DNA of 64,000 nt from Aliarcobacter faecis (GTDB taxonomy: Bacteria; Campylobacterota; Campylobacteria; Campylobacterales; Arcobacteraceae): positions 558,001 through 622,000 of the forward strand of contig NZ_CP053837.1 of NCBI RefSeq assembly GCF_013201705.1. Direction: 5' to 3'. The notes under the pieces were generated by a model. The model was not told the DNA's origin and made no database searches. It was given only the letters and a program-made list of their open reading frames with translations. A program made the translations under genes and the position numbers. Of the stretch, positions 1,812 through 27,389 are shown piece after piece. Every line of letters starts with the position of its first letter. Within the stretch, counting starts at the first letter, position 1.

Positions 1812-2474
1812 ATGAGATTTAATCAAAGTAAGTTCGCAAAAGAAGTAGGGTGTACCCAACAAAATATTTCAAAACTTATAAAAAAAGGTATATTGGAAGT
1901 AGGAGTTGATAAAAAGCTTGATTTGGATAGTTCTTTGCAAAGATTAAGAGATTTTAATTTACTTGATGAGAATAATAAATTAAAAAATGGTGGATCTTTT
2001 AAAACTGAAAAAGTAGAAGATAAAAAAGATATTACTCTTTTTGAGGCTATGAAAGATCAGCCATCAAGAGCAACTGAAACAAAAGAGCAAAAAGAGCAAA
2101 GAGAGTTAGAAGAAAAAGAGGAGCAAAAAGCTCTTAGAGAATTGGAATTAAAAGAACAAGAAGCTAGAAATAAAAATCTAATTTTAGATGAAGATGATGA
2201 CCTAACTGAATATAACTATACAAAATCAAAAGCTAGAAGAGAGCATTATCTATCAAAAATAGCAGAAATCGACACCAAAGTAAAACTTGGAGAACTTGTT
2301 CCAAAAGTTGAAGTAGAACAAACTTTTTTTGAAGAAGCTAGAAAAGTTAGAGATATGCTTTTAAATCTTCCAAATAAAATGGCTATGAGAGTAGTAGGAA
2401 AAAAAGATATTAAAGAGATTGAGTTAATAATAAATGATGAAATTAGATATATATTAGGGAATTTATCAAGATGA
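1812..2474 (+). CDS. Terminase small subunit (Nu1-like)
   Basis: A 220-residue protein with an N-terminal winged HTH (FAKEVGCTQQNISKLIKKG, about 8-26) of the kind used by lambda gpNu1 to bind cos DNA. A long Glu/Lys/Gln-rich coiled coil (about 80-125) follows, then a helical C-terminal region (about 140-220) in the position where Nu1-type subunits contact the large subunit. Its stop overlaps the large-subunit start (ATGA), the usual coupling of terS and terL. Function follows from the HTH and the invariant neighbour. Confidence 0.8.
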   Translation: MRFNQSKFAKEVGCTQQNISKLIKKGILEVGVDKKLDLDSSLQRLRDFNLLDENNKLKNGGSFKTEKVEDKKDITLFEAMKDQPSRATETKEQKEQRELEEKEEQKALRELELKEQEARNKNLILDEDDDLTEYNYTKSKARREHYLSKIAEIDTKVKLGELVPKVEVEQTFFEEARKVRDMLLNLPNKMAMRVVGKKDIKEIELIINDEIRYILGNLSR

Positions 2475-4351
2475 GTGTAAATCCACATATAAACTCTAAA
2501 TTATTAGAAGCTCTAAAAAAAGGTTTTGAACCTGATCCACTTATGACTGTTTCAGAGTGGGCTGATGCTTATAGAGTATTACCTAGTGAAAGTTCTAGTG
2601 AACCTGGGCAATACAGAACTGAAAGAATGCCTTATTTAGAAGAGATTGCTTATGAATTATCTCCACAAAGCCCAACAGCTGAAATAACTGTTATAAAAGG
2701 CACACAGCTAGGCTTTACAGAACTAGGGAATAATATGCTATTTTGCTATGCAGATTTATATCCTTGTCCTATGCTTCAAATTTTGCCAACAGAATCAGCT
2801 GTTAGAACTCACTCCTCTTCAAAACTTTGGGCTTCTATAAAAGTAACTCCAAGACTTAAAAATCTATTTCGTGCTAGAAAATCAAAAGATGGTTCAAGTA
2901 TTACATCACTTTTGTTTAGAGGTGGGAGTATAGCTCTTGGTTGGTCCAATTCAGCTGCAACATTTGCTTCAATGAGTAGGAGAGTTGTAATTTGTGATGA
3001 TATTGATAGATGGGGAGAGGAAATAGAGGGAGGTGATCCTCTTGATTTGGCAAAAAATAGAGCTGAAGCATTTCCAAACAACAAAAAGATTTACTACAAT
3101 TCAAGTCCAGGAAAGAAACACAACTCTAAAATATTGCCAAAATATGAATCATCATCACAAGCACTTTATACTATGAAATGTCCACATTGTGGTGAAGATA
3201 TAGTATTTGAAAGAGATGGATTTAAATTCTCTTATGATGAAGAGTATAGGCTTACAGATGATGTAGTTTTTGTATGTCTAAACAATGGTTGCATAATAGA
3301 AGAACACCAAAAATATGAGATGATGAAAAAAGAGAATGGTGCTAGATATGTACATAAATTTCCTGAACGAGAACATAAAGGTTATAGAGTGCCTAGCTAT
3401 TATTCACCATTTGCAAAGTGGAATGAAATATTTCAAAGCTTTTTAGATGCAAGAAAAGAGCAAAAGCAAAAAAAGATTTCAATAAAAATGGCTGGTTGGG
3501 TAAATACAAAAGATGCTAATGTTTGGGAAGAAAAGATTGAAAAACTTGATATACAAGAGTTTTTAAATAGACATGAAGATTATGCAGCTGATGTTCCAAA
3601 TGGAGCATATATATTAACTGCAGGAGTTGATACTCAAGATGATAGATTAGAAGTTGAAGTTGTAGGGTGGGGTAAATATGGAGAGAGTTGGAGTATAGCA
3701 AAATTAATTCTTGAAGGTGATCCAAAATTCCCAAGAGTTTGGCAAAAGCTAGATAATGTTTTAGAGAACAGTTACAAACACGAAAGTGGTATAGATATGA
3801 AGATTTTGGGATTAGGAATAGATAGTGGAGGGCATAGAACAGATTATGTTTACAACTATTGCAAAACAAGAGTAGAGCAAAATGTATTTTGTATGAAAGG
3901 TGATAACTCTGTAGAAACTCCAATTTTAAAATCTGGAATATCAAAAAATAAAGATGGAAGCTTACGACTTTATATGATAGGAGTAAATAGTGCTAAAGAT
4001 GTAGTTTATGGACAACTTACTACAAAAGAAGTTGGTCCAGGATATATGCACTATCCAAAAAAACCTGAGTATAATGAAGAACATTTTAAGCAGCTTACAG
4101 GTGAAGCAAAAGATAAAACAACTGGAAGATGGAAAAAGTTTAGAGCTAGAAATGAAGCACTAGATTTAAGAGTATATGCTATGGCAACACTTAGAATACT
4201 TGAAAACCAATACTATCCAAATGGTATAGACTGGGATGATATAGAACTAGAGTTTAATGCAAGAGTAGAAGAAGAGCTAAATATAGTAAGAAAAGTAGAA
4301 AAAGAGATAGTAGAGCATAATTCTTTTAGTGATTGGAGAGATAACTACTAA
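2471..4351 (+). CDS. Terminase large subunit (lambda gpA family)
   Basis: A 626-residue DNA-packaging motor. The opening MTVSEWADAYRVLP is typical of gpA-family terminases. The ATPase motif region VIKGTQLGFTE stands where the Walker A variant lies, and RRVVICDDIDRW is the Walker B region. A zinc-finger-like CPHC...CLNNGC follows at about 236-274. The nuclease half carries GVDTQDDRLEVEV and GIDSGGH with acidic residues. Length fits lambda gpA (641). It translocates DNA into the prohead and cuts it. The gene continues by a TAATG junction into a small gene, after which the accessory island interrupts the usual terL-W-portal order. Confidence 0.93.
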   Translation: MSVNPHINSKLLEALKKGFEPDPLMTVSEWADAYRVLPSESSSEPGQYRTERMPYLEEIAYELSPQSPTAEITVIKGTQLGFTELGNNMLFCYADLYPCPMLQILPTESAVRTHSSSKLWASIKVTPRLKNLFRARKSKDGSSITSLLFRGGSIALGWSNSAATFASMSRRVVICDDIDRWGEEIEGGDPLDLAKNRAEAFPNNKKIYYNSSPGKKHNSKILPKYESSSQALYTMKCPHCGEDIVFERDGFKFSYDEEYRLTDDVVFVCLNNGCIIEEHQKYEMMKKENGARYVHKFPEREHKGYRVPSYYSPFAKWNEIFQSFLDARKEQKQKKISIKMAGWVNTKDANVWEEKIEKLDIQEFLNRHEDYAADVPNGAYILTAGVDTQDDRLEVEVVGWGKYGESWSIAKLILEGDPKFPRVWQKLDNVLENSYKHESGIDMKILGLGIDSGGHRTDYVYNYCKTRVEQNVFCMKGDNSVETPILKSGISKNKDGSLRLYMIGVNSAKDVVYGQLTTKEVGPGYMHYPKKPEYNEEHFKQLTGEAKDKTTGRWKKFRARNEALDLRVYAMATLRILENQYYPNGIDWDDIELEFNARVEEELNIVRKVEKEIVEHNSFSDWRDNY

Positions 4352-4569
4352 TGTCTGTAAATCATTTAATAAATAGAAACTGGTGGAATAAAAGAGATAA
4401 TCTAAAAAACAAACCATCTTTGAGCAATAGAACTTTGCATGTGATAGATTATATAATGAGTGAAGAAGAACTAGCTCTTGGAATAGTGATAGAAAAGCTT
4501 ATGACTACTCCAAATCTATATAAAGAAACTCTTGAAAAGTTAAAGAGTGATTATCCTGATATAGAATAA
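4351..4569 (+). CDS. Small phage protein after terminase (hypothetical)
   Basis: A 72-residue protein whose ATG overlaps the terminase stop (TAATG), so it is translated from the same message. It has a basic, Trp-containing N terminus (NRNWWNKRDNLKNK) and a helical acidic C-terminal half (SEEELALGIVIEKLM). In lambda this slot holds gpW, but a better gpW candidate lies beyond the accessory island at 9,299. It could be a packaging accessory protein; no family is recognised. Confidence 0.55.
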   Translation: MSVNHLINRNWWNKRDNLKNKPSLSNRTLHVIDYIMSEEELALGIVIEKLMTTPNLYKETLEKLKSDYPDIE

Positions 4570-4643
4570 AAATAATTAATCATAATAAAATATAGAGAAT
4601 TATATAATTAGTTTATTAAAAATAAATATATGAGGAATTTATA

Positions 4644-4991
4644 ATGACTTTAGAAAATAATTATGGTTTGGTAAAAAACTTTCTTGATGCAAATAAGAAA
4701 GATTATAGTAGTGGGCTATGTGCAGATAATTTTTTTATAGAATATTATATAGATAACAAATTAAAGCTTAAAGGGGAAGAAAAAATAATTTTTAATACTA
4801 ATCATCCAGAATATAGTGATGATATTTCTATATCTAGTTTAGACAGTGATATATATCATACAGGTTTTAGAGCACAATTTCTTAAATATAAATATGATAA
4901 AGATAAAAATATTTTAGAAATAATAAGTGATAATAAAACTCCTAAACATGGCCCATATAAAGTTTTAATTTATGGTGATTATAAAAAATAA
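4644..4991 (+). CDS. Hypothetical accessory protein, 115 residues
   Basis: A soluble acidic 115-residue protein with no signal peptide or TM segment, starting behind a GAGGAATTTATA ribosome-binding region. It is separated from the upstream gene by about 75 very AT-rich bases and followed by a hairpin, so it is probably its own transcription unit. Alternating hydrophobic residues near the end (NILEIISDN, YKVLIYGDY) suggest beta structure. It is the first gene of the accessory island and faces the Rex-like pair. I do not recognise a family. Confidence 0.55.
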   Translation: MTLENNYGLVKNFLDANKKDYSSGLCADNFFIEYYIDNKLKLKGEEKIIFNTNHPEYSDDISISSLDSDIYHTGFRAQFLKYKYDKDKNILEIISDNKTPKHGPYKVLIYGDYKK

Positions 4992-5003
4992 TTAGAATTA
5001 ATC

Positions 5004-5039
5004 ATTAGTAAATATTGTAAATATATGGTATTTGCTAAT
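5004..5039. terminator. Hairpin between convergent genes
   Basis: ATTAGTAAATA and TATTTGCTAAT form an 11-bp stem (one G-T wobble) with a 14-base loop. An AAATTTTTTC tract follows on the plus strand. It separates the 115-residue gene from the leftward Rex-like pair and would insulate late transcription from the island. Confidence 0.5.
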
Positions 5040-5074
5040 TGAAATTTTTTCATTTAATGTATTCAATTGAATTT

Positions 5075-5512
5075 TTAATAATCCAAAATAATAAATACAC
5101 TTTTTGCCGTATCATATAATATACGTAATGCATAGATAAAACATCCTGTAATAGATACATTTAAAAATAATTCAAATTCATTATGCAATTTAATAAAAGA
5201 AGAATCTTGAATAATTAAAAATAAAATAGCAACAAATACTATACTAACTTGTTCTTTTATTGATAAAATCATTTGTTTTTTTGTACTGTTAAAACTATTT
5301 ATTTGACCTGTTTTATCTATCAGTTCTCTTATTTTTGTTAATAATATACTTAACGTAGCAGAATTAATAGCTATCAATGCAACTAAAAGTGTAATAAGAT
5401 TTTGTTTTAAAAAATTTATTAAATAAAGACTTCCTAAAAATAATTGTAATTGAGTTAATAAATACCCAACTACAATTGAAAGTAAGATATTGAAAACTAT
5501 ATCATTTTTCAT
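5075..5512 (-). CDS. Four-TM membrane protein, RexB-like (second gene of pair)
   Basis: A 145-residue inner-membrane protein with four predicted TM segments (about 5-30, 37-59, 86-105, 112-140) and a basic loop (TKIRELIDKTG...FNSTKKQ) between the second and third. Lambda RexB is 144 residues with four TM segments and a basic loop after TM2, and follows rexA; here too the gene is second, joined to the upstream gene by an ATGA overlap. RexB is described as a membrane channel that depolarises the cell during superinfection. I see no convincing residue-level match, so the link is by size, topology and order. Kiwa KwaA, also a four-TM protein, is an alternative. Confidence 0.5.
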   Translation of the reverse strand: MKNDIVFNILLSIVVGYLLTQLQLFLGSLYLINFLKQNLITLLVALIAINSATLSILLTKIRELIDKTGQINSFNSTKKQMILSIKEQVSIVFVAILFLIIQDSSFIKLHNEFELFLNVSITGCFIYALRILYDTAKSVFIILDY

Positions 5513-6357
5513 TCTAAAATACTTTTTAAACTTTCTGCTATATTATTTATATTATCAGAAGATATTTCCACTTCAGCTATTTCAACTTGTTTTATATCAT
5601 TTGCTGTTTGAACTCTCTTTTTAATCCCTTTTATTTTTATAGAGATATTTCCTCCCCCTTCACTTGCATAATCAACTAAATCATTGATTTGTTTGATTCC
5701 TTTATCTACACGAAGTGTTGAACTATCGTGTGAATCAATTTCTATGTTAGTTTTAGCTGTATTTGTTAATTTAGCTAAATTCTTGACATCATCACTAAGA
5801 GATTGAGAAATATTTGCCATATTTGGAGTAATTAACTCAAATTTGATATTTTGAATTTTGTTATCGTGTTCTTCTATAATATTCCAAAAAGCTTCTTTAT
5901 GGAATATTGGTTCACCATAAAAACTTAATTGTCTTTGTTCTAAAGCATTGTTTATAGATTCTGTTAAAATCTTTAAAACAGATTTTGTATGTGAAAAAGA
6001 TTTTTTTCTATCTTGAATAGCAATTATTTGTTTATCGGGATGATTCCATATACCAATAAAGATTGATGGCCAATCTTCCAAATGTTCTTCTTCAAAGTTA
6101 TCATTTTCAATCTTTGTAGTTCTTTTAGGAGCAAATCTAAAAAGTAAGAAATCATTTTTATTATAAACAAGGAAACCTAATAATGAATTATTTTGAATTT
6201 TCCAATCTTTTATTGATTTAATTGCTTCATAAAATAAAATATTCTTTTTTGCAATTAAGTCTTCTATACTAGTTATCTCACCAAATAAATCACCTTGAAA
6301 ATATCTATTTGTTGGCAATATTTGATATCTATATAGATTAAAATTAATATTTTTCAT
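5509..6357 (-). CDS. Soluble sensor-like protein, RexA-like (first gene of pair)
   Basis: A 282-residue soluble protein with no TM segment, translationally coupled (ATGA) to the four-TM gene. It opens with an alpha/beta region (INFNLYRYQILPTNRYFQG), has a mid segment with IIAIQDRKKSF, and a C-terminal half containing IKFELITPNM, a long helix, then YASEGGGNISIKIKGIKKRV before a final helix. Lambda RexA is 279 residues, DNA-binding, and precedes rexB. Size, order and partner fit a RexA role, but sequence similarity is not demonstrable by eye. Its position, antisense within the late operon, fits a lysogen-expressed gene. A KwaB-like sensor is the other possibility. Confidence 0.5.
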   Translation of the reverse strand: MKNINFNLYRYQILPTNRYFQGDLFGEITSIEDLIAKKNILFYEAIKSIKDWKIQNNSLLGFLVYNKNDFLLFRFAPKRTTKIENDNFEEEHLEDWPSIFIGIWNHPDKQIIAIQDRKKSFSHTKSVLKILTESINNALEQRQLSFYGEPIFHKEAFWNIIEEHDNKIQNIKFELITPNMANISQSLSDDVKNLAKLTNTAKTNIEIDSHDSSTLRVDKGIKQINDLVDYASEGGGNISIKIKGIKKRVQTANDIKQVEIAEVEISSDNINNIAESLKSILE

Positions 6358-6380
6358 TTATTGTTAGTTCCTTAATAGTA

Positions 6381-6413
6381 AAATTAAATAATTATATTAA
6401 AATTATTTAATTT
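6381..6413. terminator. Perfect 13-bp inverted repeat between leftward units
   Basis: AAATTAAATAATT at 6381-6393 and AATTATTTAATTT at 6401-6413 are perfect complements with a 7-base loop. Lying between the TM/coiled-coil gene and the Rex-like pair (110-base gap), it may end the upstream leftward unit or be an operator for the pair. The stem is purely A-T, so it would be a weak terminator. Confidence 0.4.
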
Positions 6414-6467
6414 ATTGCTTAACAGTTTTAATAACTTTGATGATGTTTTTTTCATAAAATTATTCAA

Positions 6468-7340
6468 CTAAGATTTATCTTTTAAATAACTAGAAATCTC
6501 TTTTAAGACATTTTTTATATTGTCTGATTCCATTTTTTCTCGTTTAAGTTCTATTGTACTTTCACCTTTTTTTAGTATAAAGTTTCTTTCGGTTTGTAAT
6601 AAATCACTAATAATATCTTTCATAGCTTCATCATTGCCTGTTGCATGAGCAATTTCTATAGCTGCAAGTTTTGATTCTATATTTGTGAGTTCATTTTGAA
6701 AATGTTTTATTTCATCAAGAGTAAATTTATATAATCTTAAAAAGAAATATGCAAATATTTGCATAAATAAGACTAATAAAACTCTTGGTGTATAGTATAA
6801 AAAGATTGAATTAATTTCTTTTGATAGGTTATTAGCATCAGATATTGATAAAACCGATAATCCTAAAATTGACAAACCAACAAGTGTTATTCCTCCACCT
6901 ATAAGTAGATTTACAATAGCTCTTCTTCTCAAATTAGATACTTCATCTTCTAATCTTATTTTTACATTTATTAAAGATTGTTGTAGTGAATATAATTTCA
7001 GCGTTTTTTCTAATTCTTCTTTTTCATTAATAGATGTAGAAAAGTTTAAGTTTTTCAGAACTTTTATTTTTTCTTCAAATAAATTAATTTCATTTTTATA
7101 TTTTTCAATTGGAGATTTTTCCTTAAGTTTTTCTGAATTATTTACTAAATAGTAATATCCAAAAATCATTGCTCCAAATATAATAAATAATATTCCTAAA
7201 AATATGTTTTCTTCAACTATACTACGATGAGTTAAATATACTGATTTTATTATTTCTGTAGATATTGACATTAGACCAGATAATATTAACAATATAGCAA
7301 TTGAATAAACAATAATTCTTATTTTATTATTAGATAACAT
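6468..7340 (-). CDS. TM/coiled-coil membrane protein of the accessory island
   Basis: A 290-residue protein with a TM hairpin (about 8-28 and 45-65), a cytoplasmic coiled coil (about 70-135, NLRRRAIVN at its end), a second TM pair (about 140-165 and 183-205) and a helical tail containing YKFTLDEIKHFQNELTNIES and LQTERNFILKKGESTIELKR. I chose ATG 7340: AAAGG lies 9 bases upstream, whereas the TTG at 7346 is only 3 bases from it. I do not recognise a named family. The layout resembles membrane effectors of phage-defence systems, which is inference only. Confidence 0.6.
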   Translation of the reverse strand: MLSNNKIRIIVYSIAILLILSGLMSISTEIIKSVYLTHRSIVEENIFLGILFIIFGAMIFGYYYLVNNSEKLKEKSPIEKYKNEINLFEEKIKVLKNLNFSTSINEKEELEKTLKLYSLQQSLINVKIRLEDEVSNLRRRAIVNLLIGGGITLVGLSILGLSVLSISDANNLSKEINSIFLYYTPRVLLVLFMQIFAYFFLRLYKFTLDEIKHFQNELTNIESKLAAIEIAHATGNDEAMKDIISDLLQTERNFILKKGESTIELKREKMESDNIKNVLKEISSYLKDKS

Positions 7341-7353
7341 TTCCAATTTCCTT

Positions 7354-7458
7354 TCAATTTTTCAATAAATCATAAACAAAATATCCAACAATACAAACTA
7401 AAGTAAAAACTAATGATACTTTTAATTTAAAAATCAGATATTTATGAGATGGTAACAT
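7354..7458 (-). CDS. 34-residue single-TM peptide (putative)
   Basis: ATG 7458 follows the HTH gene's stop by one base, with GAAGGGA upstream. The peptide starts MLPSHKYLIFKLK and then has a hydrophobic stretch (VSLVFTLVCIVGYFVY), ending DLLKN. It fits exactly between the HTH gene and the 290-residue membrane protein. One TM helix with a basic N terminus suggests a small membrane partner or regulator of the following protein. Confidence 0.45.
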   Translation of the reverse strand: MLPSHKYLIFKLKVSLVFTLVCIVGYFVYDLLKN

Positions 7459-7459
7459 T

Positions 7460-7678
7460 TTATTTAATCCCTTCTATTTCAAGAACTTTATCTTTTACAT
7501 CATTATAACTTTTAGCTTTCACATAATTATCCAACCAAGATTTAACCCAAGGTGGAACAGGTTTATTTGTATCATTCCAGTTATTTACTGTATTATATGA
7601 GATATTTGATAATTCTGCAAAATCTTTTTTACTTAAATCAATATTCTTTAAAAAATCTGTAAATTCTTGTTTATTCAC
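7460..7678 (-). CDS. Small HTH regulator of the accessory island
   Basis: A 72-residue protein from GTG 7678 (GGGGA about 7 bases upstream; an upstream ATG at 7702 lies inside a palindrome and lacks a ribosome site). The sequence SKKDFAELSNISYNTVNNW is a clear helix-turn-helix, followed by PPWVKSWLDNY. It reads leftward into the TM peptide and membrane protein, and diverges from the antirepressor genes across a control region with palindromes. It is likely the local repressor or activator, binding near its own promoter. Its resemblance to Cro/XRE-type regulators is by HTH only. Confidence 0.65.
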   Translation of the reverse strand: MNKQEFTDFLKNIDLSKKDFAELSNISYNTVNNWNDTNKPVPPWVKSWLDNYVKAKSYNDVKDKVLEIEGIK

Positions 7679-7701
7679 TTGTAATCCCCATAAAATAAGC
7701 A

Positions 7702-7719
7702 TTTCACTTAAAAGTGAAA
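7702..7719. promoter_or_regulatory. Perfect palindrome, likely operator
   Basis: TTTCACTT-AA-AAGTGAAA is an 18-bp perfect dyad 24 bases upstream of the HTH gene's GTG start, where a bound regulator would block its promoter or leader. It is the natural candidate binding site for the adjacent HTH protein (autoregulation). Confidence 0.55.
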
Positions 7720-7739
7720 CGCCAAATTTATATTAAATA

Positions 7740-7830
7740 GATGTAATATTCTATCATAATATATTTAAAAGATGTATTAGTGCTTGCAAATATATTTATT
7801 TGATGTAATATTTTAATATAAAACATCAAA
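7740..7830. promoter_or_regulatory. Divergent control region with repeats
   Basis: GATGTAATATT occurs at 7740-7750 and again at 7802-7812 in the same orientation. The second copy lies in an inverted repeat, TTTGATGT (7799-7806) with ACATCAAA (7823-7830). The region sits between the leftward HTH unit and the rightward 37-residue/antirepressor unit and ends just before the AAAGGA ribosome site at about 7828. This is the layout of a lysis-lysogeny type switch. Confidence 0.5.
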
Positions 7831-7840
7831 GGAATGTAAA

Positions 7841-7954
7841 ATGAGTATAAAAGCAATAAATAAAAGTGGTAGAAGTAGAGTTTTAAGAGTTGATAGTTTT
7901 GAAACTATGATAAAAATTGTAGATAGATTTGAAAGATGGGAGTTTGTATCATGA
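7841..7954 (+). CDS. 37-residue peptide upstream of antirepressor (putative)
   Basis: ATG 7841 with AAAGGAATG upstream encodes a basic 37-residue peptide (MSIKAINKSGRSRVLRVDSF...FERWEFVS). Its TGA overlaps the ATG of the antirepressor gene (ATGA), so it is probably the first gene of the rightward unit and a translational coupler. No family is recognised. Confidence 0.5.
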   Translation: MSIKAINKSGRSRVLRVDSFETMIKIVDRFERWEFVS

Positions 7955-8805
7955 GCGAAATTATAAAAATATCAAGTGAAATTATAGGAATTAAAAAGAT
8001 AAATAGTGTAAAAGCAAGAGATTTACATAAGGCTCTTGGAATTATAAAACCTTTTACAGATTGGATAAAAGTTCAAATCCAAAGAACAGGGTTAAGAATA
8101 AATATAGATTATATTGTTTTTGATGAAAAGGTTGAAGCTGGAAATGGTTTTTCTTTTAGAAAAGAATATATACTTGATGCAAGAAGTGCAAAACATATTG
8201 CAATGATGAGTCAAGGTAAAAAAGCCGAAAATGTAAGGGATTATTTTGTAGAAATAGAAGAACAATATGAACTATTGATGCAAAACCCAAACATTCACGA
8301 ACTAAGTGGAAGAGTTGGTGGACTTACTCGTTCAAACAATGAATTGAGAAAAGAGCTTGATAAATTGAAGAAAAACTCTAAAAAGAGATTTGAAAATCTT
8401 GAAGATGATGTTGATGAACTAAAATCAAAACAGTTTTTAATCACTCATAAAAGTTTTGATGAAAAGCTAGATTTACTATTTAAAAGAAATAAAGAGATTT
8501 TAAATAGAAATGCAAATGAGTTTAATAGAGAAACTTTTATCAAATGGCTACAAGAACACAATGTTTTTTATGGTGAATATCTTGAAATCTTAAGAACAGA
8601 TGGTACTGAACTTCAAAGATGGGCTATAAATCAATTTGAGAATGAGAAAAAAAGAAGAGTTGAAGCTGAAAAAGAGCTATATAAAATGAAATATAGATAT
8701 GAAAAAACATTAAATAAAATATCAGATTTGCAAAAAATTGCTAAAAATATTGTGGATTTTGATATGGAAATAGAAAAAGAAATGAATATGGTTGATTTTG
8801 GGTAA
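7951..8805 (+). CDS. AntA/AntB-type phage antirepressor
   Basis: A 284-residue protein. Residues about 10-100 carry the AntA/AntB domain (VKARDLHKALGIIKPFTDWI, then DYIVFDEKVEAGNGF, YILDARSAKHIAMMSQGKKA). A coiled coil spans about 120-170, and a charged helical C-terminal half follows. The start is ATG 7951 through an ATGA overlap with the upstream peptide gene, with TGGGAG 8 bases before; an in-frame ATG at 7936 is less well placed. Antirepressors relieve lysogenic repression, so beside the divergent HTH gene it probably controls this island or prophage induction. Confidence 0.8.
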   Translation: MSEIIKISSEIIGIKKINSVKARDLHKALGIIKPFTDWIKVQIQRTGLRINIDYIVFDEKVEAGNGFSFRKEYILDARSAKHIAMMSQGKKAENVRDYFVEIEEQYELLMQNPNIHELSGRVGGLTRSNNELRKELDKLKKNSKKRFENLEDDVDELKSKQFLITHKSFDEKLDLLFKRNKEILNRNANEFNRETFIKWLQEHNVFYGEYLEILRTDGTELQRWAINQFENEKKRRVEAEKELYKMKYRYEKTLNKISDLQKIAKNIVDFDMEIEKEMNMVDFG

Positions 8806-8831
8806 TATAAAGCCAAAAAGGCTTTATATTA
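8803..8831. terminator. Bidirectional terminator (12-bp perfect stem)
   Basis: TAATATAAAGCC at 8803-8814 and GGCTTTATATTA at 8820-8831 form a perfect stem around an AAAAA loop. The hairpin contains the stop codons of both convergent genes (TAA 8803-8805 and 8829-8831), an economical bidirectional terminator. Confidence 0.75.
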
Positions 8832-9101
8832 AATAGAAGTGTTATTTTTTAATATATCCATAACCTGTTTTTCAAAACCCTCTAAAATAAAAATAAATGC
8901 TGATCTATCGTCTAAGGATATTTTTTCTCTTATATATTTTAAAGTAATTATATTTTCAGATTGAATAACATCAAAAATTTTACTAAGGTATTTATACTTT
9001 ATTTCAAAATAAGGTGAATATTCTTTATTAAAAGAAGGAGAATCTTCTTGAATTATTACTAATATATCATTTATATCCGATTCTGTAAAAAACAATTTCA
9101 T
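8829..9101 (-). CDS. Hypothetical 90-residue accessory protein
   Basis: An acidic soluble 90-residue protein (MKLFFTESDINDILVIIQED at the start, FIFILEGFEKQVMDILKN near the end), expressed leftward from its own promoter region and ending in the shared terminator. AAGGAAATTAATT precedes the ATG. It is the last gene of the accessory island before the late genes resume. No family is recognised; a phage-regulated immunity or anti-host role would be a guess. Confidence 0.5.
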   Translation of the reverse strand: MKLFFTESDINDILVIIQEDSPSFNKEYSPYFEIKYKYLSKIFDVIQSENIITLKYIREKISLDDRSAFIFILEGFEKQVMDILKNNTSI

Positions 9102-9219
9102 AATTAATTTCCTTTATTGTTAATTTATAGTTTTATCAAGTATAAAACCGATATTTTACAACCTTTTTACTACTATTTAAAAAACTACAACCTATATACC
9201 ATAATTTTAAAAAAAATGG

Positions 9220-9241
9220 TAGGGTAGAAAATCCTACCCTA
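9220..9241. other. Hairpin upstream of head genes
   Basis: TAGGGTAG / CTACCCTA form an 8-bp stem with a 6-base loop. A T-run follows only in the minus-strand reading (the plus strand has AAAAAAAAT before it), so it would terminate leftward, not rightward, transcription. It may insulate the 90-residue gene from antisense reading. Confidence 0.4.
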
Positions 9242-9267
9242 AAAAAATATTCTAAATCTTGTCAAAA

Positions 9268-9295
9268 TTGCACCAAGAAAAATAAAAAGGTGCAA
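9268..9295 (+). promoter_or_regulatory. Hairpin covering the ribosome site of the gpW-like gene
   Basis: TTGCACC at 9268-9274 pairs with GGTGCAA at 9289-9295 (14-base loop). The second arm includes the GG of the Shine-Dalgarno AAGG that serves ATG 9299, so folding would hide the ribosome site of the first head gene. Confidence 0.4.
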
Positions 9296-9298
9296 AAG

Positions 9299-9532
9299 AT
9301 GGCAAGAACAATAGGTGAACTTTACGATTCAATTCTTTTTCAAATTGAAAAAACACAAGAATCACAATCTTATCAAACTGAATCAGGTGCACAACTTACT
9401 CGTGGACAACTTTCTACACTTTATGCTGAGAGAAATAGACTTTTAGAAAAAATTGAACAATATGGTAGAAACTATATCGAAGGACAAAATACAGCACCAA
9501 TTGGTGATATTTCTTTAGTGAGTTTTGCATAA
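9299..9532 (+). CDS. gpW-like head-tail connector
   Basis: A 77-residue protein from ATG 9299 (AAGG 8 bases upstream; a GTG at 9290 overlaps the ribosome site). Helical N terminus MARTIGELYDSILFQIEKTQ, a beta-like QSYQTESGAQLTRGQL and a long helix LYAERNRLLEKIEQYGRNY match the alpha-beta-alpha layout of lambda gpW, which caps the portal before tail joining. It joins the portal gene by a TAATG overlap, the standard W-B order. Assignment rests mainly on size and position. Confidence 0.6.
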   Translation: MARTIGELYDSILFQIEKTQESQSYQTESGAQLTRGQLSTLYAERNRLLEKIEQYGRNYIEGQNTAPIGDISLVSFA

Positions 9533-26141: not shown

Positions 26142-27389
26142 TTAATATTTTAAATTTAATATATAGTTACTCCACCAGTTCATTAAAGGCTTTTGTCTTT
26201 CAAGATATACTATTCTATTTTTATAAGATAGTTCAACTTTTCCTTCTTTATGGTGGTCTAGCACACTTTCTATTATTCTAGTATCTATTTTATGTATATC
26301 TTGTTTCTCTTCAGTGATTGTTCTAAAGCTACCTCTAAAGCTATGTAAAGATTGTTTTTTTTCTGCTGTAAATCCCAATCTTATTAAAGCTTGGTTTGGG
26401 CTTTCCCTATTAATAGGACTTATATTATCAGTTCCTATAAATATAAACTCTTTTAAGTTTGTATATCTTGAAGAAAACTCTTTTTGTTCATTTAAAATGT
26501 TTATAACTTCATCTGTCAAAGGTAACATAAAATCTTGTAAATTATGATTTTTAACTTTCATTAAATTTCTTGGAATAGTTAAAATTTTATTTTCAAAATC
26601 TATATATTCCCATTTTAAAAAGCATAAATTATAAGCTCTTAAGGGTATATGTAAAACAAATTTTAAAGCATTTTTTATAGATATGCTTCCATTATATCCA
26701 TATACTTTATTTACAAGTTCTTTAAAAATATCCTCATCTGTAATTTTTGCATAGTTATTTCTAACTCTCTTTTCTACAAGAACATCATTTTTATTTATAT
26801 TTGCTAAATAGTTGTATTCACAATAATCTTTCAAAACTGCAAAAGCCCATAAATTTTGAAGATAGTTAAAAAGTCTTGAAGCCGTCTCTTTTGCTGTTTT
26901 TTCTTTATCTTCTAAAAGTTTTAATAATTCTAATTTTGTAATATCTTTTATATTTCTATCTTTAAATCTTGGTAAAACATAGTTTAAAAAGAGATTATAT
27001 TTTCTATCATATGTTACTTTTTCAAGTGTCTTTTTTTGTCTAATAAACCACTCTTCCATAACATTTTGAAATAAACCTTTATTGTTTATTTGTTCTTCAT
27101 TCTTTATATTTTTCTCTTGTTCTATTGGATCTATGTTATTAGAAATAGTTTGTTTTAAATTGGCTCTTAACTCTCTTGCTTTAGATAAACTAATAGTTGG
27201 ATAAATTCCTAAAGATTTTTTTCGTCTTTTTTTAAGTGTAGGTGAAACATAAACAAACTCCCATATTTTACTACCATTTACTTTTATAAGTAAATGTAAT
27301 CCTTGCCCATCACTTAATGTGTATTCTTTTGTTTTTGGTTTAGAATTTGATATTTTTGTATCTGTTAGAGGAGTTGGAATTTTTGGCAT
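26142..27389 (-). CDS. Tyrosine integrase (P4-type)
   Basis: A 415-residue site-specific recombinase. The N-terminal DUF4102-like arm-binding domain shows TKEYTLSDGQGLHLLIKVNG and RRKKSLGIYPTISLSKAREL; the core-binding domain lies at about 105-200. The catalytic part has Arg in PLRAYNLCFLKW, HSFRGSFRT (His-x-x-Arg), the His pair in SVLDHHKEG and a Tyr in LSYKNR. It reads away from the tmRNA gene and lies 199 bases from its 3' end, consistent with integration there. GTAACA repeats lie upstream. Confidence 0.93.
   Translation of the reverse strand: MPKIPTPLTDTKISNSKPKTKEYTLSDGQGLHLLIKVNGSKIWEFVYVSPTLKKRRKKSLGIYPTISLSKARELRANLKQTISNNIDPIEQEKNIKNEEQINNKGLFQNVMEEWFIRQKKTLEKVTYDRKYNLFLNYVLPRFKDRNIKDITKLELLKLLEDKEKTAKETASRLFNYLQNLWAFAVLKDYCEYNYLANINKNDVLVEKRVRNNYAKITDEDIFKELVNKVYGYNGSISIKNALKFVLHIPLRAYNLCFLKWEYIDFENKILTIPRNLMKVKNHNLQDFMLPLTDEVINILNEQKEFSSRYTNLKEFIFIGTDNISPINRESPNQALIRLGFTAEKKQSLHSFRGSFRTITEEKQDIHKIDTRIIESVLDHHKEGKVELSYKNRIVYLERQKPLMNWWSNYILNLKY

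What the first reader, a model, noticed from the sequence alone, without database searches (positions are those of the whole stretch)
5075..6357. RexA/RexB-like two-gene cassette hidden antisense inside the late operon
A 282-residue soluble protein is translationally coupled (ATGA) to a 145-residue four-TM protein. Lambda RexA and RexB are 279 and 144 residues, in this order, and RexB has the same topology (TM1, TM2, basic loop, TM3, TM4). Sequences are too far apart to align by eye, so this would be a remote homologue or an architectural analogue. It sits in reverse orientation between terL and portal, where a lysogen-expressed exclusion gene fits. This is my best candidate for an undescribed anti-phage system.
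Basis: partly seen in the sequence, partly recalled or inferred. Interest (0 to 1): 0.72.

Follow-up and report, generated by a model that had tools for sequence, protein, structure and literature searches.

The report
Rex-like two-gene phage-exclusion pair
A prophage carries a conserved gene pair, a soluble protein plus a small membrane protein, that is built and placed like the classic phage lambda Rex exclusion genes and probably stops other phages, but its sequences form a family of their own.

Summary
A (282 aa) and B (145 aa, four predicted membrane segments) lie antisense between terL and portal, joined by ATGA. Neither matches a family above cut-off in Pfam, NCBIfam or PADLOC. A relatives were found on 29 contigs (Campylobacterales, Proteobacteria, a Bacteroidia MAG, viral contigs, a Vibrio phage); 27 have a small membrane-protein gene behind A. 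A and B distances track each other (Mantel r 0.917). Settings are those of exclusion or defence: a cI-type repressor then A-B on six viral contigs, the order of lambda cI-rexA-rexB; and type I restriction operons, one reading HNH-HsdM-HsdS-KwaA-KwaB-A-B-PDC-S32. By sequence, A is not shown to be a RexA nor B a RexB: no profile comparison was significant. A is a remote relative of DUF4747 (E 6e-6, above all permuted controls), the domain that published HHpred work assigns, weakly, to RexA-type proteins. In a second clade A is clearly homologous but B is not, suggesting a conserved sensor with an exchangeable membrane effector. Best reading: a new Rex-type family.

The parts
5509..6357 (-). Gene A: 282-aa soluble protein, proposed infection sensor/trigger; C-terminal half remotely related to DUF4747
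   Evidence: alignments; profile match to DUF4747 with permuted controls; no family above cut-off and nothing better than E 0.07 in PHROGs
5075..5512 (-). Gene B: 145-aa membrane protein with four predicted membrane segments, proposed membrane effector
   Evidence: no family above cut-off and nothing better than E 0.09 in PHROGs
5509..5512 (-). ATGA stop/start overlap joining A and B
   Evidence: exactly 4 bases in 18 of 27 pairs
6468..7346 (-). 292-aa membrane protein upstream of A on the same strand (110 bases away); possible fellow passenger
   Evidence: phrog_5157 E 2e-29. Not noticed beside A in the ORF lists; no systematic search for it there
7460..7702 (-). 80-aa HTH protein, head of the minus-strand gene run; possible local regulator
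   Evidence: phrog_8898 E 7e-21; HTH_3 below cut-off
7936..8805 (+). AntA-type antirepressor, divergent from the HTH gene, in the same slot
   Evidence: PF08346 E 3e-16
2471..4351 (+). terL, left border of the slot
   Evidence: PF05876/PF20454
9532..10980 (+). portal gene, right border of the slot (with the small gene 9290-9532 before it)
   Evidence: PF05136 E 4e-90

Best explanation
A and B form a prophage-borne, Rex-type two-gene phage-exclusion module. A is a cytosolic sensor, probably dimeric and DNA- or nucleoprotein-binding, that recognises something made by an incoming phage. It then switches on B, a small four-helix inner-membrane protein that depolarises or permeabilises the membrane and halts growth before phage is released. 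Shown here: a conserved pair that stays together, overlapping genes, co-evolution, purifying selection, and exclusion/defence settings. Inferred: sensing by A, effector role of B, membrane damage, dimerisation and DNA binding. By sequence it is a new family, remotely linked to DUF4747, and not a member of Pfam RexA/RexB.
For: Pair on 27 of 29 contigs; B-led search: 10 of 10 loci carry A upstream, one of them a broken A. Mantel r 0.917 over 20 pairs, 0 of 5000 permutations as high; low dN against dS in both genes. S24/HTH repressor 43-78 bases upstream, same strand, on six contigs. HsdR-HsdM-HsdS-A-B in L009 and HNH-HsdM-HsdS-KwaA-KwaB-A-B-PDC-S32 in L100. A vs DUF4747: E 6.3e-6, score 47.9; 100 column permutations max 23.4, 100 block permutations max 30.2. 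All 11 DUF4747 loci examined have a membrane-protein ORF directly behind. Clade I and II A proteins are homologous (E 2e-19) while their B partners show no similarity, as expected of a sensor with an exchangeable effector. Published Rex-type pairs (CarolAnn, Sbash, P. putida) need both genes and are held to act through the membrane protein (PMC12894663, sections 7, 8, 12; PMC6426606 and PMC6426596, passages).
Against: No significant similarity of A to lambda RexA or actinophage RexA-like proteins, or of B to RexB or CarolAnn gp43/Sbash gp31. The least poor values were clade II A vs RexA E 0.032 (reversed control 0.5), actinophage RexA-like vs A E 0.06, and B vs three RexB E 0.042 over 8 columns (reversed 0.54); with seven RexB the score equals the permuted mean. 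No structure model and no phenotype. In Butters the roles are reversed: the soluble protein inhibits and the membrane protein restrains it (PMC7542560, passages; PMC12894663 section 12). A has no net positive charge (K+R 36, D+E 40). In the window itself no relative of the cI-type repressors was found, and the promoter scan shows nothing above chance, so lysogenic expression is not shown.
Confidence: 0.6

Rival explanations
1. Butters-type inversion: A is the cytosolic antiviral effector, and B is a membrane anchor or restraint that holds A until infection releases it.
For: A is the member conserved across clades I and II while B changes beyond recognition, which also fits A as effector. Precedent: Butters gp30/gp31 (PMC7542560, passages).
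Against: Of 28 contigs readable behind A, 27 have a B-type gene (the exception, L014, has an opposite-strand ORF 85 bases after A); B's dN/dS is of the same order as A's. CarolAnn, Sbash and P. putida pairs need the membrane protein.
Confidence: 0.2
2. Superinfection exclusion at the membrane in the manner of SieB or Sie proteins: B blocks phage DNA entry or late steps, and A is a regulator or chaperone of B.
For: The only Pfam hint for window B is SieB at E 0.51, far below cut-off; the position is that of a prophage passenger gene in the late operon.
Against: That match is chance-level; an obligate 280-aa partner is not part of SieB (recalled). Chromosomal copies in restriction/Kiwa operons are not prophage self-exclusion.
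Confidence: 0.1
3. A toxin-antitoxin or lysogeny-control pair: the pair tunes repressor output or prophage maintenance (as lambda RexA biases the lysis-lysogeny switch) and any phage exclusion is secondary.
For: cI-A-B gene order on six contigs; an AntA antirepressor and an HTH gene share the window slot. Lambda RexA affects the bistable switch (PMC11077077, abstract).
Against: No relative of those repressors in the restriction-operon contigs L009, L010 and L017 (G287 not included). No toxin or antitoxin family above cut-off for A or B. P. putida rexABpp does not alter expression of its repressor gene (PMC12894663, passage).
Confidence: 0.1

Closest known systems
Lambda RexA/RexB (PF15969/PF15968)
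   Same: Two genes, soluble ~280 aa then four-segment membrane ~145 aa, same order; on six contigs with relatives of the window pair the genes follow a cI-type repressor on the same strand.
   Different: No significant sequence or profile similarity for either protein; 15-base gap in lambda against a 4-base overlap here; the window pair lies between terL and portal, with no relative of those repressors in the window.
DUF4747 (PF15931) pairs, as in L084/L101, L087, L088, L089, L093-L099
   Same: Soluble ~290-aa protein followed by a small membrane protein; remote profile match of A's C-terminal half to DUF4747 (E 6e-6).
   Different: A does not match PF15931 by hmmscan; the membrane partners are longer (176-265 aa as measured) and look different by eye (not compared by profile).
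CarolAnn gp44/gp43, Sbash gp30/gp31 (actinophage Rex-like systems)
   Same: Two-gene architecture, four membrane segments, prophage expression (papers); a basic-hydrophobic-basic-acidic motif just after membrane segment 2 in both membrane proteins (Sbash R70A and D73A there are defective in defence, PMC6426596, passage).
   Different: Soluble proteins are 370-372 aa and give no significant match to A (E 0.06-0.39); the motif also occurs in 1 of 10 control ORFs, so it proves nothing.
P. putida RexABpp (PP_5643/PP_5644)
   Same: Prophage cI-linked pair; DNA-binding soluble protein and membrane effector with four predicted membrane domains; both genes needed for defence (PMC12894663, sections 7, 8, 12).
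   Different: RexApp-His is 37.5 kDa, larger than expected for A (282 aa). Its sequence was not in hand, so it was not compared.
Kiwa (KwaA/KwaB)
   Same: Small membrane protein plus soluble protein; found directly upstream of A-B in L100.
   Different: Membrane gene first in that operon; no profile similarity of A to that KwaB or of B to that KwaA.

Membership tests
RexA (PF15969) / RexB (PF15968) | Match to the Pfam or PADLOC RexA and RexB models | tested here: not met
   No RexA or RexB match up to E 1 for A or B; the lambda proteins score 1e-97 and 9e-92 with the same Pfam library. PF15969 finds nothing in the host genome up to E 10.
RexA (PF15969) / RexB (PF15968) | Profile-profile similarity of A to a RexA alignment and of B to a RexB alignment | tested here: not met
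   A6 vs 10-sequence RexA: E 0.32-0.43, reversed control 0.15. Clade II A alone vs RexA: E 0.032, reversed 0.5, not significant. A4 vs seven RexB: score 15.4, 40 block permutations mean 15.5, max 22.0.
RexA (PF15969) / RexB (PF15968) | RexA two-domain RdgC-like fold, dimer, non-specific DNA binding | not testable with these tools
Rex-type exclusion systems (functional class) | Two adjacent genes: soluble protein then four-segment membrane protein | tested here: met
   27 of 29 contigs; hydropathy calls four segments in 16 and three in 11 of the 27 B proteins at the cut-off used; window B has four.
Rex-type exclusion systems (functional class) | Prophage-borne and placed for expression in the lysogen, typically after cI | tested here: inconclusive
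   Met on six viral contigs (repressor 43-78 bases upstream, same strand: L019, L020, L021, L022, L027, L031) and loosely in L018 (802 bases) of 27 contigs searched. In the window there is no such repressor; the genes upstream are an HTH protein and a membrane protein.
Rex-type exclusion systems (functional class) | Excludes heterologous phage by membrane depolarisation or growth arrest | not testable with these tools
   Needs plating and membrane-potential assays.
DUF4747 (PF15931) | hmmscan match above Pfam cut-off | tested here: not met
   No PF15931 match for window A or ten further A proteins given to Pfam.
DUF4747 (PF15931) | Remote homology by profile comparison | tested here: met
   E 6.3e-6 and 3.7e-5 in the two directions, score 47.9; 100 column and 100 block permutations reach at most 23.4 and 30.2. 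Clade II alone does not reach it (E 0.09, reversed 0.08).
Kiwa | KwaA/KwaB family match | tested here: not met
   No PADLOC match for A or B; comparison with one KwaB and one KwaA E 0.37 and 0.33.

The most novel reading that the evidence does not exclude
The pair is a modular Rex-type immune system: one conserved sensor family (A) coupled to at least two, possibly three, unrelated small membrane effectors, working both as a prophage exclusion gene behind cI and as the last, abortive layer behind type I restriction and Kiwa in chromosomal defence operons. Lambda RexAB, CarolAnn/Sbash and DUF4747 pairs would then be branches of one old sensor-plus-pore lineage.
Probability: 0.4. Interest if true: 0.78.

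Novelty: new variant of a known kind. Interest (0 to 1): 0.62.

Why it matters
Rex exclusion has been known for about 70 years, yet PMC12894663 (section 12) counts only five described RexAB-like systems and says that how T4 rII activates lambda Rex is still unknown. A family with 29 contigs here, with E. coli copies (32 of 5,426 complete genomes with at least 80% of one version) and copies inside restriction/Kiwa operons, would give a tractable comparative series for the trigger and the pore, and a profile that PADLOC-DB 2.0.0 lacks.

Tried and rejected
Tested and dropped: (1) direct homology to lambda RexA/RexB: nothing significant. (2) A as KwaB or B as KwaA: no. (3) Sequence search of solved structures with profiles of A and B: one chance hit (E 0.46) and none. 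(4) Weak Pfam, PHROGs and NCBIfam hints for A and B: below cut-offs or E 0.01 and worse. (5) Post-TM2 motif shared with RexB, CarolAnn gp43 and Sbash gp31: a small control has it in 1 of 10 ORFs after segment 2 and 2 of 10 after any segment, and distant RexB proteins lose the acidic residue. (6) Promoter scan of 4400-9400: 40 sites found, 42.2 expected, so none is claimed; three terminator-like sites against 0.5 expected, one of them inside B at 5477-5442, not pursued. (7) Two weak hits (L007 E 0.003, L008 E 0.008), short partial matches, were set aside before counting. (8) Searches that found nothing: A in phages and plasmids, L019 A in phages, B alone in viral contigs, a DUF4747 protein in phages and viral contigs.

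What the counts leave out: the 29 contigs are not independent events (the L019, L020 and L021 pairs are near-identical, as are those of L051 and L056). The 32 E. coli genomes with the L046-type pair and 7 of the 9 with a diverged copy are not among the 29. One search used 20 of the 27 pairs (left out: L012, L025, L044, L046, L051, L055, L056). The repressor BLAST covered 27 of 29 contigs (not G287 or L056).

Full report
THE OBSERVATION. B has four predicted membrane segments spaced much as in lambda RexB. The neighbours terL and portal are real. Late-type genes run on to about 24.3 kb and an integrase-like ORF lies at 26142-27389 (my reading, no family search). The host belongs to Campylobacterales: three genomes flagged 'same order' have contigs of the same length and place as Sulfurospirillum and Helicobacter records. 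The host genome has one copy of A.

THE SLOT. Between terL and portal, A-B share an insert with an HTH gene and a 292-aa membrane-protein gene (minus strand), an AntA antirepressor and a 115-aa ORF (plus strand) and a 90-aa minus-strand ORF. Four other genomes of the host family (of 104 searched, host included) have a related terL. The closest (49%) carries a different minus-strand gene, a TPR protein, in the same slot; the other three have only about 0.25-0.27 kb between terL and the small gene before portal. The slot looks like a place where passenger genes are exchanged.

RELATIVES AND CO-OCCURRENCE. Searches of viral contigs, GTDB genomes, the host's phylum, plasmids, E. coli genomes and phages gave A relatives on 29 distinct contigs. 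On 27 a small membrane-protein gene lies directly behind (gap -26 to +8 bases; hydropathy calls four segments in 16 and three in 11). In L022 the contig ends 53 bases after A. In L014 a 510-aa opposite-strand ORF (transposase-like to my eye) begins 85 bases after A and no B is seen. Damaged copies among the 27: B of L012 and A of L025 are each split over two ORFs. Searching with B, 10 of 10 loci have A upstream. A and B distances correlate (r 0.917 over 20 pairs; 0 of 5000 permutations as high); the five closest pairs have dN 0.005-0.052 against dS 0.28-0.97. The pair is rare: 5 full-length hits among 397 genomes of the phylum, the host's included; 2 of 369 in the class of the Vibrio genome, that genome included; 32 of 5,426 E. 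coli genomes with at least 80% cover plus 9 with a diverged partial match.

SETTINGS. With repressor: in L019, L020, L021, L022, L027 and L031 an S24/HTH-type repressor ends 43-78 bases before A on the same strand; in L018, 802 bases (Pfam was run on L018, L019, L022 and L031, the others follow by BLAST). The L022 and L019 repressors are 54% identical while their A proteins are 93% identical, so the repressor changed more than A while the order stayed. Chromosomal defence operons: L009 is HsdR-HsdM-HsdS-A-B; L010 has HsdS and one further ORF before A; L017 has HsdS directly before A; L100 (genome G287) reads HNH, HsdM, HsdS, KwaA, KwaB, A, B, then a PDC-S32 defence-candidate gene, all on one strand with overlaps or gaps of 3-50 bases. 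E. coli: an integrase then A-B near icd (L046), and apparently lambdoid prophages in which the pair is antisense to the surrounding genes, as in the window (L051, L056). A Vibrio phage classed in Vinavirales also carries the pair (L055).

WHAT A AND B ARE BY SEQUENCE. Neither matches a curated family. A of clade I (window type) and of clade II (E. coli, Vibrio phage) are homologous (E 2e-19 over 217 columns; reversed control 0.027), but their B proteins show no similarity beyond controls: B was either replaced or diverges much faster. A's C-terminal half aligns with DUF4747: with one DUF4747 protein E 0.021, with four E 9.5e-5, with nine E 6.3e-6 and 3.7e-5. Permuted DUF4747 alignments reach at most 23.4 and 30.2 against 47.9. 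In all A was compared by profile with four outside families (lambda RexA, actinophage RexA-like, DUF4747, KwaB), and clade II alone does not reach DUF4747. All 11 DUF4747 loci examined have a membrane-protein ORF directly behind, one pair beside a repressor-like gene at the edge of what looks to me like a Mu-like prophage. Lambda RexA, CarolAnn gp44 and Sbash gp30 align significantly neither with A nor with my DUF4747 set; their link to DUF4747 is from the literature (HHpred, there called weak; PMC6426606, PMC6426596, PMC7542560, passages seen). So the chain from A to RexA has one link tested here and one taken from papers that I could not reproduce with these tools.

MECHANISM. Published Rex-type pairs give the model: a soluble protein senses infection and activates a membrane protein with four predicted segments, with loss of membrane integrity and growth arrest (PMC12894663, sections 7, 8, 12; PMC6426596 and PMC6426606, passages). 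The present pair fits it in architecture, overlap of genes, repressor linkage and company of other defence genes. A conserved A with a changing B fits sensor plus effector. The opposite division of labour (Butters) is the main rival. DNA binding, trigger and pore formation are inference.

NOVELTY. Eight full-text searches (RexA/RexB/KwaB; RexA/RexB/lambda; Kiwa/KwaA/KwaB; RexAB from 2019; Kiwa/prophage/RexA; DUF4747; RexA/abortive infection/Campylobacter; five Rex-like terms) listed no title or abstract start that describes this family; searches list 15 of 52 and 25 of 58 papers. I read six of the listed papers in part (PMC12894663, PMC11077077, PMC6426606, PMC6426596, PMC7542560, PMC13373217). 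The library lacks most subscription papers and preprints. DUF4747/CarolAnn systems behind restriction operons are already noted in PMC13373217 (passages), so the setting has a precedent. I rate the finding a new variant of a known kind.

Noticed in passing
window 6468-7346 and 7460-7702 (-): A 292-aa membrane protein (phrog_5157) and an 80-aa HTH protein (phrog_8898) share the antisense insert with A-B; function unknown.
   Followed up: partly
L080:2617-4299: In the closest relative prophage the terL-portal slot holds a different antisense gene, a 560-aa TPR protein: the slot looks like an exchange site for passenger genes.
   Followed up: partly
L100:1554-9928: Compact one-strand defence operon HNH-HsdM-HsdS-KwaA-KwaB-A-B-PDC-S32; the last gene matches a PADLOC candidate family only in its C-terminal third.
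   Followed up: partly
L009:9299-9907 and L010:9302-9910: A 202-aa gene lies directly after B in both contigs (the L009 copy matches DUF6037); possible third passenger of the same island.
   Followed up: no
L101:6699-8118 (genome G292, same family as the host): A DUF4747 gene plus a 178-aa membrane-protein gene beside a repressor-like gene at the edge of an apparently Mu-like prophage: a second Rex-type pair in the host's own family.
   Followed up: partly
CP099174.1 (L046): This 1.3-Mb E. coli 'plasmid' record carries icd, rluE and nudJ near the pair; it looks like a mislabelled piece of chromosome.
   Followed up: no
MW057783.1, listed: A 'Campylobacter phage' record of 48 kb has a RexA identical to lambda's at about the lambda position; probably lambda itself under a wrong host name.
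   Followed up: no
J02459.1 35825-37940: Three successive CDS (rexB, rexA, cI by position) all carry the product name 'rexb' in this record as held.
   Followed up: no
B residues 60-63 (window protein) and Sbash gp31 residues 70-73: A basic-hydrophobic-basic-acidic motif follows membrane segment 2 in B, lambda RexB, CarolAnn gp43 and Sbash gp31, where two of its residues matter for defence (paper); too common in a small control to count as evidence.
   Followed up: partly
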